A stretch of 64,000 nucleotides of DNA from Streptomyces sp. WM6386 (lineage in GTDB: Bacteria > Actinomycetota > Actinomycetes > Streptomycetales > Streptomycetaceae), in contig NZ_JXTE01000021.1 in assembly GCF_000972385.1 (NCBI RefSeq), positions 1 through 64,000 on the forward strand. The letters are read 5' to 3'. Each line of letters opens with the position of its first letter. The first letter of the stretch is position 1. Shown piece after piece: positions 49,069 to 51,364 of the stretch. Below the pieces are notes generated by a model. The model did not search any database, was not told the DNA's origin, and saw only the letters and a program-made list of their open reading frames with translations. The position numbers and the translations under genes are program-made.

Positions 49069-49232
49069 GGTGAGCGTCGGTTCGGTGGGGCGAGGCTGAC
49101 GTGCTTCCTGTAGCAGCAAGATCGGTTGCGCGTTCGAGGATTTGGGGTTCTTCGCACGAATGAGCGCAGCTCGTCCGCATATACCTCCTGGACGGATCTT
49201 GGTTAGTAATTTCGGTCCTGTACTTCAGAGAG

Positions 49233-49550
49233 GAGGTCAGTCGCTCCCCGACCGCAAGGTCGTCGGCTGACCAGCCCAAGTCATCGCGATCCGAGAGGTC
49301 AGGGAGGTGCCCCGATGACTACGTTTCCTGCAGGCGAGCAGACCCACCAGGCTGTGCTTTGTCAGCAGCCTGCTCTGGAATCCGTGGGAGCAGACACCCC
49401 TGGGAGCAGGGACGAAACGGCTCACGGACACCCCGCCATCGCGCGGGGCACCGGCAGGGAACATGGGCGAGGGGAGACCGACGGGCCCGGCACCGAAGCC
49501 CGTCGGCGTCACGCCAAGGCAGAGAACGGGAGCGGTGACGCTCCTGCGCA
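49233..49550 (+). ncRNA. Predicted omega-RNA of the IscB element
   Basis: Strongly structured, as expected for an IscB guide-RNA scaffold 5' of the gene. Hairpins: outer GGTCAG (49235-49240)/CTGACC (49267-49272), enclosing CGACC-GCAA-GGTCG (GNRA tetraloop, 49249-49262); CCCTG-GGAG-CAGGG (49398-49411); CCCCGC/GCGGGG (49431-49448); CCGACGGGC/GCCCGTCGG, 9 perfect pairs (49478-49506); and GGAGCG-GTGA-CGCTCC (GNRA, 49529-49544). In known IscB systems the guide is the ~16 nt directly 5' of the scaffold, here about 49205-49232. The boundaries are estimates. Confidence 0.65.
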
Positions 49551-50949
49551 AGACGAGTCGTACACGGGTGGTGTCGGCGCGAGCAGGGTTTTCGTCCTCT
49601 CCAAGGACGGGCAGCCGCTCATGCCCTGCCACCCGGCCCGCGCCCGCGAACTCCTGGGCAAGGGAAGGGCGGTTGTCGCCCGGCAAGTGCCTTTCACCAT
49701 CCGGCTGAAGGACCGCACGTTCGCCGAGTCGGAAGTCGACGGCGTACAACTGCGCATCGACCCGGGCTCCAAAGGCACGGGCCTCGCTCTCACCGACGAG
49801 AAGAAGGAAGTCGACGGACAAGGCGCCGTAATCACCGTCAGGCGAGGGCTGATCTCGGTCGAACTCCAGCACCGTGGCGACCAGATCCACCTGTGCATGC
49901 AACAGCGCGCCGGTTACCGACATAGACGGCGCTCCGCCAACTGCCGTTACCGAGCACCACGCTCGAACAACCGAACTCGCCCCACAGGGTGGCTCCCACC
50001 CTCCTTACGCCACCGCGTCGACACCACCGCCTCCTGGACAGCCCGGCTGTGCCGCTACGCGCCGATCGCCGAGATCCACCTAGAAAGCGTCGCCTTCGAC
50101 ACCCACGCCATGAGCGCGGGCCGAGCCCTCACCGCGGTGGAGTACCAGCAAGGAACCCTGGCCGGTACCGAAACCCGGGCCTACCTACACGCCAAGTGGA
50201 ACAGCGCCTGCGCCTACTGCGGCGCAACCGGCGTACCCCTGAACATCGATCACGTCAGACCACGCAGCCGAGGGGGCTCGAACCGCATCTCCAACCTCGT
50301 CCTGGCCTGTGTCCCCTGCAACAAGGTCAAGGGCAACACCCCCGTCGAAGCCTTCCTCGCCCACCAACCCGACCGCCTCACAAAGATCCTCCAGCAAGCA
50401 AAAACCCCGCTCCATGACGCAGCCGCCATGAACGCGACCCGCTGGCAGCTCACGGAAGCGCTGAGTGGCCTCGGCCGCCCGGTTCACACTTGGTCGGGCG
50501 GCCGTACGAAGTGGAACCGCAGTGCCATGGGGCTGGCCAAGACCCACACCTTGGACGCGCTCTCTGTCGGGCGTCTGGACCACGAGAGTGGCGACACAAT
50601 CGTGCGCTTCCCCGCGCAGATTCTCCTCGCCAAAGCGGCTGGGCGCGGCTCATACTCTCGTACCACGCCGGACCGATTCGGCTTCCCTCGCCTGCGGCGG
50701 GCTCGCGTCAAGCAACACTTCGGGTACGTCACAGGAGATCTCGTACGAGCCACCATGCCCACCGGGAAGTGGGCGGGCACCTGGACCGGCCGTATCTCGG
50801 TGCGGGCCAGAGGGCAGCACAGCCTCACAACGCCGGAGGGACGGATCAACGTCTCCTACTGGAATCTGCGGCTGCTGCAACGCGGCGACGGATACGGCTA
50901 CAGCGTCCGTGCCGAAGGGACACCGTCAACATCCCGGAAAATCGGTTGA
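49315..50949 (+). CDS. iscB: IscB RNA-guided nuclease (RuvC-HNH)
   Basis: 544 residues. Domains: PLMP motif (VLSKDGQPLMPCHPARARELLGKG, about 95-120), RuvC-I LRIDPGSKGTGLAL (D149), arginine-rich bridge helix QQRAGYRHRRRSANCRYR, RuvC-II EIHLESVAFD (E257), HNH CAYCGATGVPLNIDHVRPRSRGGSNRISNLVLACVPCNKVKGN (H313) and RuvC-III KTHTLDALSVG (H411, D414). All catalytic residues are present, so both nicking domains look intact. GGGAGGTG precedes ATG 49315, but the first ~90 residues overlap the predicted omega-RNA and look non-protein-like. There is no tnpA in the window. Confidence 0.95.
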   Translation: MTTFPAGEQTHQAVLCQQPALESVGADTPGSRDETAHGHPAIARGTGREHGRGETDGPGTEARRRHAKAENGSGDAPAQDESYTGGVGASRVFVLSKDGQPLMPCHPARARELLGKGRAVVARQVPFTIRLKDRTFAESEVDGVQLRIDPGSKGTGLALTDEKKEVDGQGAVITVRRGLISVELQHRGDQIHLCMQQRAGYRHRRRSANCRYRAPRSNNRTRPTGWLPPSLRHRVDTTASWTARLCRYAPIAEIHLESVAFDTHAMSAGRALTAVEYQQGTLAGTETRAYLHAKWNSACAYCGATGVPLNIDHVRPRSRGGSNRISNLVLACVPCNKVKGNTPVEAFLAHQPDRLTKILQQAKTPLHDAAAMNATRWQLTEALSGLGRPVHTWSGGRTKWNRSAMGLAKTHTLDALSVGRLDHESGDTIVRFPAQILLAKAAGRGSYSRTTPDRFGFPRLRRARVKQHFGYVTGDLVRATMPTGKWAGTWTGRISVRARGQHSLTTPEGRINVSYWNLRLLQRGDGYGYSVRAEGTPSTSRKIG

Positions 50950-50962
50950 TCGGTCGCCGATC
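50948..50962 (+). repeat. Hairpin at iscB stop (possible element right end)
   Basis: GATCGG-TCG-CCGATC overlaps the iscB stop codon. It could be the transcription stop or right-end hairpin of the element. Confidence 0.45.
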
Positions 50963-51006
50963 GCTTCCTAGTGTGTGCCTCACGCCGAGAGGAGGTGATC
51001 GGGTAC

Positions 51007-51045
51007 ATGAGTGAAACCCGGACGCGCGAGGTGGCTGCGGGCTAG
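51007..51045 (+). CDS. Possible 12-residue leader ORF
   Basis: MSETRTREVAAG. GGAGGTGATC (50991-51000), complementary to the 16S 3' end over ten bases, lies six bases before ATG 51007. A hairpin GCGGGC-TAGCG-GCCCGC (51037-51053) contains the stop codon. The arrangement resembles a leader peptide, but the peptide itself is not recognised. Confidence 0.3.
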   Translation: MSETRTREVAAG

Positions 51046-51095
51046 CGGCCCGCCATCCCACCCAGTGTGGTGTCGGACCAGCGTGTGAGCGAAAC

Positions 51096-51215
51096 ACGCA
51101 GCCGGCCCAGACCCACGCAGCCGGCCCAGACCAACGCAGTCACCCGACCCGCAAGCTCGCCGGTACGTCCGGCCGGCTCCCCCGCTCAGGCGGTGGAACC
51201 CGAGCTTGCGGGTCG
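51096..51215. repeat. 19-bp tandem repeat and 15-bp inverted repeat
   Basis: ACGCAGCCGGCCCAGACC(C/A) occurs twice head to tail (51096-51114, 51115-51133) plus ACGCAG. Next, CGACCCGCAAGCTCG (51145-51159) and CGAGCTTGCGGGTCG (51201-51215) form a perfect inverted repeat with a 41-base loop. It lies in the untranslated region before the leader peptide at 51290; role unknown. Confidence 0.8.
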
Positions 51216-51289
51216 TCTGCGTTCCTGGAGGATTTTCGGGAGTGATCTGCGACACCCGCGTTTCTTGCGGCGCGCAGTACTCTGACCTC

Positions 51290-51364
51290 ATGCTTTCGCT
51301 CGTTCGACGCCGCCACGTGGACTACGTCCGCGTCACGAGCATGGGCTGTCGACGCTCCATCTGA
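51290..51364 (+). CDS. Actinobacterial putative leader peptide
   Basis: 24 residues, MLSLVRRRHVDYVRVTSMGC-RRSI. The RRRHVDYVRVTS core with a Cys near the end fits the Streptomyces family of putative leader peptides (RRHVDL-RV-S--C). These precede sulfur-related and other genes and are thought to act by cysteine-sensitive attenuation. Stop 80 bp before the oxygenase start at 51444. Confidence 0.65.
   Translation: MLSLVRRRHVDYVRVTSMGCRRSI

What the first reader, a model, noticed from the sequence alone, without database searches (positions are those of the whole stretch)
49315..50949. Catalytically intact IscB, an RNA-guided nuclease, in a Streptomyces chromosome
All parts of an IscB are readable: PLMP motif, split RuvC (D149, E257, H411/D414), arginine-rich bridge helix and a full HNH (H313). 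IscB proteins are the ancestors of Cas9 and work with an omega-RNA. No disruption was seen.
Basis: partly seen in the sequence, partly recalled or inferred. Interest (0 to 1): 0.9.

Follow-up and report, generated by a model that had tools for sequence, protein, structure and literature searches.

The report
RNA-guided nuclease targeting rival sRNA alleles
A genuine IscB (an ancestor of Cas9) sits in a Streptomyces chromosome with its guide RNA overlapping its own gene, and the guide matches the small-RNA gene next door as other Streptomyces carry it but not as its own host carries it, which looks like a natural RNA-guided selfish homing gene.

Summary
Two things were missed. (1) The omega-RNA overlaps the gene: a Shine-Dalgarno and ATG lie inside it, and the frame runs through it to the PLMP domain in 29 of 32 related loci. 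(2) The locus is fixed beside the core sRNA Ms_IGR-5 and carries its 16-nt guide internally. In 30 of 32 such loci the guide matches an RTG-flanked site of Ms_IGR-5 as found in another genome at >=13/16 (17 of 32 perfect over the 14 TAM-proximal bases), while the resident allele never does (0 of 32; 3-8 mismatches in those 14). Guides address three sites in the sRNA. The IscB tree conflicts with its flanking genes. Best reading: an RNA-guided counterpart of free-standing ("intronless") homing endonucleases that cuts non-self alleles of the neighbouring sRNA gene and spreads by recombination with an immune allele. Activity and homing are inferred, not shown. Family: IscB; new variant.

The parts
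49111..49210 (+). Conserved left block of the immobile IscB locus with a -10-like TAGTAAT (49204-49210; TAGCGT in many relatives); probable omega-RNA promoter
   Evidence: blastn blocks start at about 49111 or 49232 in IscB+ loci; alignment. Promoter assignment is inference.
49220..49235 (+). omega-RNA guide GTACTTCAGAGAGGAG (16 nt)
   Evidence: Lies directly 5' of the guide-adaptor stem; 15/16 match to the Ms_IGR-5 allele of L022 (GTACTTCGGAGAGGAG followed by GTG), 10/16 to the window's own allele. Occurs once in the own genome; with guide plus RTG as one pattern and up to 3 mismatches no other site has an intact RTG.
49236..49482 (+). omega-RNA scaffold (Rfam RF02033 HEARO)
   Evidence: 69.1 bits, E 4.1e-13, gathering 83; 30 of 78 predicted pairs show standard pairs differing on both sides over 32 loci
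49483..49545 (+). Probable 3' extension of the omega-RNA, with a terminal hairpin at 49528-49545
   Evidence: G-C to A-U changes in the hairpin stem
49302..49307 (+). Shine-Dalgarno GGGAGG in the loop of a predicted omega-RNA hairpin; the start codon 49315-49317 lies in its stem (49279-49285 pairs with 49314-49320)
49315..49587 (+). N-terminal extension of IscB (91 codons) encoded by the omega-RNA region; frame kept open in 29 of 32 loci
   Evidence: low confidence, probably disordered, in the model
49588..50949 (+). IscB body: PLMP, RuvC-I D149 (49759), bridge helix about 198-213, RuvC-II E257 (50083), HNH 299-341 with H313 (50251), RuvC-III H411/D414 (50545-50556), C-terminal WED/TAM-interacting region (by analogy)
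50946..50974 (+). Ms_IGR-5 promoter, -35 TTGATC, 17-nt spacer, -10 TAGTGT; its -35 contains the IscB stop codon TGA (50947-50949)
   Evidence: Same motif upstream of Ms_IGR-5 in the IscB-less loci printed and. Function inferred.
50982..51221 (+). Ms_IGR-5 sRNA gene (Rfam RF02471), the inferred target gene
   Evidence: 54.7 bits, gathering 45; similar DNA in 118 of 121 genomes of the genus searched
50979..50994 (+). Site 1, resident allele CTCACGCCGAGAGGAG, followed by GTG: mismatched to the own guide
51015..51030 (+). Site 2, AACCCGGACGCGCGAG followed by GTGG: identical (16/16) to the guide of the IscB in L014 (S. griseorubiginosus)
50991..51006 (+). Site 3, followed by ATG: the position addressed by the L019 guide (9/16 in L019's own allele, 14/16 at best in others)

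Best explanation
An immobilised IscB-omegaRNA locus that behaves as an RNA-guided free-standing homing endonuclease. The element lacks the right end of mobile relatives and is fixed beside the core sRNA gene Ms_IGR-5. Its omega-RNA carries a guide inside the conserved block, not copied from flanking DNA, that matches Ms_IGR-5 alleles of other streptomycetes next to an RTG motif. The resident allele is mismatched, so the host is not cut. When the locus meets a chromosome with a matching allele, for instance after conjugation, IscB would cut there and recombination would copy IscB together with the resistant sRNA allele. Expression may limit itself, because the same RNA is the IscB reading frame (SD and ATG inside a scaffold hairpin) and the omega-RNA, so ribosome and IscB would compete for it. 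Shown here by sequence: intact IscB, covarying omega-RNA, start codon in the omega-RNA, guide-target matches, lack of self match, tree conflict with the flanks. Inferred: nuclease activity, TAM use, transfer by homing, autoregulation.
For: Guide match to non-self Ms_IGR-5 alleles: 30 of 32 loci at >=13/16 beside RTG; shuffled guides reach >=14 in 0 of 3200; 9 IscBs with no Ms_IGR-5 downstream reach at most 11. Over the 14 TAM-proximal bases, which OgeuIscB needs for cleavage (PMC9640706, passages), 17 of 32 guides have a perfect and 12 more a one-mismatch non-self target, while all 32 self sites have 3-8 mismatches. Self matches >=13/16: 0 of 32 against 4.3 expected by re-pairing, P=0.005. Guides address three sites of the sRNA. 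L160 and L162 match each other's alleles perfectly over those 14 bases (15/16 and 14/16 overall). The IscB topology is rejected by the flanking genes and the reverse (AU p <=4.7e-4 in each of six comparisons; 11 loci). DNA similar to the target gene is in 118 of 121 genomes and was not found in the plasmid and phage collections. A right-end motif of mobile Streptomyces IscBs has no copy near this gene; the stop codon lies in the sRNA promoter.
Against: No cleavage or transfer was observed. The mean-based self test gave only P=0.068 with 24 loci and 0.011 with 32; at >=12/16 there are 3 self matches against 6.7 expected, P=0.054; requiring a perfect 14 gives P=0.37 because few pairs qualify. 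Loci are related by descent, so permutation P values are optimistic. In self sites the bases next to the RTG mostly match and mismatches lie mainly distal, which could allow binding without cutting. The tree conflict shows exchange, not its cause; the left- and right-flank trees also reject each other at 5% (0.035 and 0.008), and distance correlations are unclear (IscB against flanks 0.24-0.41, flanks among themselves 0.14-0.58). The window guide has no 16/16 target among the 97 other alleles; its best is 15/16, 13 of 14 proximal. Two loci do not fit with RTG: L009, which has a boundary deletion (15/16 without the RTG condition), and L181, which has an unrelated guide and a stop in its IscB.
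Confidence: 0.5

Rival explanations
1. Relic: the element once inserted in Ms_IGR-5, the guide is a decayed copy of that flank, the sRNA was later restored beside it, and the mismatch to the resident allele is drift.
For: In mobile Streptomyces IscBs the guide is the host flank and the right flank begins with or near ATGA, and Ms_IGR-5 site 1 reads GGAG-GTGA in many alleles, so an original insertion there is natural.
Against: The L014 guide (site 2) sits behind the same promoter block as site-1 guides (GATCGCTAGCGT as in L005), which an insertion flank would not give; for L026 only TAGCTTCG is shared with L010, and for L019 this was not examined. Drift predicts self matches at least as good as non-self; they are worse. 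ORF, catalytic residues and omega-RNA pairs are maintained.
Confidence: 0.21
2. Regulator: partial, TAM-proximal pairing lets the nuclease bind the start of the resident Ms_IGR-5 gene without cutting and repress it, like TldR proteins or Cas9 with a short guide (recalled examples).
For: Site 1 lies at the sRNA start just after its promoter; in self sites the positions nearest RTG nearly always match (27 site-1 guides); 8 contiguous bases match in the window.
Against: Sites 2 and 3 are downstream; nothing in this model explains near-perfect matches to other genomes' alleles; the nuclease residues are intact.
Confidence: 0.13
3. Defence or incompatibility: the locus cuts incoming chromosomal DNA that carries a foreign Ms_IGR-5 allele, protecting the resident locus, without spreading itself.
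For: Same guide-target data; the reciprocal pair L160/L162.
Against: The IscB tree departs from its flanks, as expected if the locus itself moves; no similar sRNA in plasmid or phage collections and no hit of two guide-target patterns in viral contigs.
Confidence: 0.1
4. Ordinary vertically inherited IscB of no special function, with chance guide similarity to a purine-rich SD-like sequence.
For: Site 1 ends in GGAG-GTG, an anti-16S-like motif (recalled), so the last four bases are shared by all site-1 guides.
Against: Matches extend over most or all of the 16 nt, include sites 2 and 3 that are not SD-like, and shuffled or non-adjacent guides do not reach them.
Confidence: 0.06

Closest known systems
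IscB / HEARO OMEGA nucleases (OgeuIscB and others)
   Same: Domain order, catalytic residues, HEARO-type omega-RNA with a 5' guide
   Different: The omega-RNA is described as lying in the 5' UTR of IscB (PMC9755519, section 9); here it contains the start codon and codes for the N-terminus. The guide is internal to a fixed locus rather than the flank of a transposon.
Free-standing homing endonucleases of phage T4 (SegF and kin, intronless homing)
   Same: Cleavage site away from the insertion site of the nuclease gene; promoters of downstream genes embedded in the nuclease gene (PMC2988022, passages). That the self allele is immune in the phage case is recalled.
   Different: Those recognise DNA by protein (recalled); here the specificity would be a 16-nt RNA guide, in bacterial chromosomes.
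[quoted passage not shown]
   Same: RNA-guided nuclease of an insertion sequence cutting copies that lack the element (PMC11870625, abstract and passages)
   Different: There the guide records the insertion site; here the target gene stays intact beside the nuclease and immunity would come from an altered allele.
Mobile Streptomyces IscB copies (genome G544, five copies 84-89% alike)
   Same: Same family and omega-RNA type
   Different: Guide equals the host left flank; the right end is followed by ATGA in 4 of the 5 copies, not found in L174. The window clade shows neither.

Membership tests
IscB | Profile match above the curated cut-off | tested here: met
   NF040563 418.7 bits, cut-off 175
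IscB | PLMP motif, split RuvC, arginine-rich bridge helix, HNH | tested here: met
IscB | Associated omega-RNA with guide 5' of the scaffold | tested here: met
   HEARO 69.1 bits, E 4e-13, but under the gathering score of 83; covarying stems
IscB | RNA-guided DNA cleavage | not testable with these tools
   no assay
IS200/IS605-type IscB transposon | Right end and guide equal to flanking host DNA | tested here: not met
   Right-end motif of mobile copies: one match with 2 mismatches in the 64 kb window, at 767, far from the gene; the ORF runs into the sRNA promoter; the guide is inside the conserved block
Homing endonuclease (free-standing) | Target is a conserved gene near the insertion, present in genomes without the element beside it | tested here: met
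Homing endonuclease (free-standing) | Resident allele is not a target | tested here: met
   By sequence only: 0 of 32 at >=13/16; all 3-8 mismatches in 14
Homing endonuclease (free-standing) | Horizontal spread at one locus | tested here: inconclusive
   Tree conflict with flanks; mechanism not shown
Homing endonuclease (free-standing) | Cleavage and biased inheritance in crosses | not testable with these tools
   needs a mating experiment

The most novel reading that the evidence does not exclude
A natural RNA-guided gene drive in bacterial chromosomes: a Cas9 ancestor that re-aims a 16-nt guide at successive sites of one core sRNA gene in competing strains, in an arms race that diversifies both guide and sRNA, and whose mRNA is at the same time its guide RNA.
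Probability: 0.43. Interest if true: 0.9.

Novelty: new variant of a known kind. Interest (0 to 1): 0.72.

Why it matters
What OMEGA nucleases do for their hosts or for themselves once transposition is lost is an open question. This locus offers natural guides, natural matching and non-matching alleles, and a predicted TAM, so a cleavage assay and one cross could test whether a Cas9 ancestor acts as a homing nuclease. It would also add a guide RNA that doubles as the coding start of its own effector, and could explain why a conserved sRNA varies at just these sites.

Tried and rejected
Before comparing relatives I suspected a 1-base frameshift between the omega-RNA and the PLMP domain; relatives showed that the long frame is the conserved one. 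Selection on the amino acids of the extension was not shown: third-position excess P=0.085 (codons 2-56), 0.079 (57-90), 0.028 (2-28), 0.47 (29-56), against <0.0002 in the PLMP region. Guide aimed at phages or plasmids: no match. Guide aimed elsewhere in the own genome: none with RTG. A second IscB locus (L148, L149, L152) has guides unrelated to Ms_IGR-5 (at most 10/16) and no target in the fetched loci at 2 or fewer mismatches. Rfam was run on the window region only; the run on other loci failed, so HEARO was not scored in relatives.

Rows left out of the 32-locus test: duplicates (13 groups collapsed); L028 (guide region deleted); L163, L180, L182 and L183 (script found no guide; the last three not looked into); L031 and other IscBs without Ms_IGR-5 downstream in the fetched stretch (nine of these served as control). 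The 66 other alleles are 61 from loci with no IscB directly upstream, 40 of them short stretches around the sRNA, and 5 beside IscB remnants or a damaged IscB (L020, L028, L034, L035, L037); one, L120, is truncated. One of those genomes (G012) has an IscB elsewhere, and G040 an IscB remnant some 5 kb away. L030, L032, L181, L184 and L185 are damaged or partial IscBs and were kept in. For the trees 11 of 18 loci were used: L003, L005, L014, L017 and L018 lack a flank gene in the stretch; L013 (odd citA distances) and L019 (divergent IscB) were dropped. Several thresholds were tried; all are given.

Full report
Observation. The ORF at 49315-50949(+) is 544 aa without internal stop. It matches NCBIfam guided_IscB at 418.7 bits (cut-off 175) and Pfam RRXRR and HNH. 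Its nearest solved relatives by sequence are IscBs, and the top four Foldseek matches of its predicted structure are IscB complexes (mean pLDDT 58.9, so only the RuvC/HNH core is reliable). It is the only IscB found in its genome. The genus is taken as Streptomyces from its named relatives. IscB is present, over the family cut-off, in 41 of 392 genomes of the genus but in only 8 of 296 genomes sampled over the phylum, the window's own counted in both.

Omega-RNA. Rfam HEARO matches 49236-49482 with 69.1 bits, E 4e-13, below the gathering score of 83. An alignment of 32 related loci predicts 78 pairs; 98.2% of cells form standard pairs and 30 pairs show standard pairs that differ on both sides (structure and counts come from the same alignment, so they lean towards it). 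A further hairpin at 49528-49545 with G-C to A-U changes suggests that the RNA is longer than the Rfam model.

Gene inside the guide RNA. The PLMP region begins only at residue 92. No ATG, GTG or TTG lies in frame between 49387 and there in the window; the in-frame starts are ATG 49315 and two GTG codons, all inside the omega-RNA. The ATG is preceded by GGGAGG at 49302-49307. In 29 of 32 loci the frame is open from this start position to PLMP (28 ATG, one ACG), at seven different lengths; L004 (ACG and a TAG), L017 (+1) and L185 (stop, partial gene) break it. More distant Streptomyces IscBs have ATG, GTG or TTG after a Shine-Dalgarno-like sequence at the same place, but in the lineage of L148, L149 and L152 the frame is not kept open. 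In the predicted fold the start codon pairs (49314-49320 with 49279-49285) and the Shine-Dalgarno is in the loop. Hence translation and omega-RNA folding should exclude each other (inference). Selection on the amino acids of the extension could not be shown. The one report read on this point describes the omega-RNA as 5' UTR (PMC9755519, section 9). An overlap with the reading frame was not seen in the listings (15 of 26, 7 of 7, 15 of 92 and 25 of 113 papers listed), nor IscB homing of this kind in those (12 of 370 and 12 of 19 listed); the papers by Weinberg 2009 and Altae-Tran 2021 are not held, so either may be in print.

A fixed locus. In 15 of the 18 loci a relative of the window's PAS-type gene and of citA or pdxH lie within the fetched flanks of about 4 kb (order and orientation vary, in L014 both are on one side); partial IscBs or remnants stand near the same genes in L020, L032-L035 and L037. 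Downstream, the IscB stop codon lies in TTGATC, the -35 of a TTGATC-N17-TAGTGT promoter, followed by the sRNA Ms_IGR-5 (54.7 bits, gathering 45). The IscB-less loci printed keep this promoter and sRNA; 118 of 121 genomes have similar sRNA DNA. Its transcript is marked as validated by RNA-seq in S. lividans (PMC8079986, passages) and was found in S. avermitilis (PMC8780764, passage). By contrast, a mobile Streptomyces IscB subfamily, with five copies in genome G544, has host DNA directly left of the scaffold, and in four of the five the right end is followed by ATGA. That right-end motif has no copy near the window's gene.

Guide and target. The 16 nt before the scaffold were compared with Ms_IGR-5 alleles at sites followed by RTG. 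For 32 distinct loci, 30 guides match an allele of another genome at >=13/16 (best 13 to 16; 31 without the RTG condition). Shuffled guides reach 14 in 0 of 3200 and >=13 in 0.44%; guides of nine IscBs with no Ms_IGR-5 downstream reach at most 11. Site 1 is the SD-like 5' end; site 2 is AACCCGGACGCGCGAG-GTGG, identical to the guide of L014 and, in another allele, 15/16 to that of L026; site 3 precedes ATG (L019, 14/16). The L014 guide is a 16/16 match to the window's own site 2. Before the L014 guide stands the same GATCGCTAGCGT as before the site-1 guide of L005, so there the guide was exchanged, not the flank; for L026 the shared stretch is shorter and L019 was not examined.

No self match. 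In none of the 32 loci does the resident allele match at >=13/16 (maximum 12), against 4.3 expected on re-pairing (P=0.005) and 6.95 expected from the 66 other alleles. At >=12 there are 3 against 6.7 (P=0.054); the mean self match is 9.19 against 9.86 (P=0.011). OgeuIscB needs about 14 TAM-proximal pairs and tolerates mismatch only at positions 15-16 (PMC9640706, passages). On that scale 17 of 32 guides have a perfect and 12 more a one-mismatch non-self target, while self sites have 3-8 mismatches. Thresholds there: <=0 P=0.37, <=1 P=0.036, <=2 P=0.003, <=3 P=0.009. An earlier mean-based test with 24 loci gave P=0.068. Alleles with no IscB beside them (61) are hit by more of 30 guides than alleles of the 32 IscB loci (0.245 against 0.148, one-sided P=0.02). 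Self mismatches of 27 site-1 guides lie mainly in the RTG-distal half, because the last four bases never vary.

Horizontal exchange. For 11 loci the IscB tree and three flank trees reject each other (AU p<=4.7e-4 in all six comparisons). The trees of the left gene and of the two right genes also differ at 5%, but far less (0.035 and 0.008), and both accept the tree of all flank genes together (0.36 and 0.19). Distance correlations do not separate the cases cleanly. So IscB has moved relative to its neighbours while staying at the same place, as homing would do; other recombination would also do it.

Conclusion. The simplest account is a selfish RNA-guided homing locus: IscB cuts non-self alleles of the neighbouring sRNA and is copied with a resistant allele. 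A relic of an old insertion, a repressor and a barrier function remain possible. By family it is an IscB; by arrangement it is a new variant. On checking, the odds of the main reading were lowered slightly (0.52 to 0.50, novel case 0.45 to 0.43) because the flank trees also disagree with each other and the kept promoter block is clear for only one of the switched guides.

Noticed in passing
51290-51364 (+): Short ORF MLSLVRRRHVDYVRVTSMGCRRSI upstream of the oxygenase gene; resembles actinobacterial leader peptides (recalled).
   Followed up: no
L148, L149, L152: A second IscB lineage whose whole fetched 4 kb aligns between three genomes (79-82%), with similar but varying guides; possibly another fixed, guide-switching locus with an unknown target.
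   Followed up: partly
L082, L084, L085, L088, L089: Distant IscBs of the same phylum also have long N-terminal extensions, four of the five starting MQKL-ERNTYTP, so a reading frame through the omega-RNA may be wider spread (HEARO not scored there).
   Followed up: partly
L173-L177 (genome G544): Five IscB copies 84-89% alike: a mobile subfamily whose elements end before ATGA in four of five.
   Followed up: partly
49315-50949: A predicted protein identical to the window's own (P0023, 420 aa) starts after the PLMP motif, so automatic annotation hides the domain.
   Followed up: yes
50988-50999: Ms_IGR-5 begins with AGAGGAGGTGAT, nearly the complement of the 16S rRNA 3' end (recalled); relatives such as L025 carry GAAAGGAGGTGATCC.
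   Followed up: no
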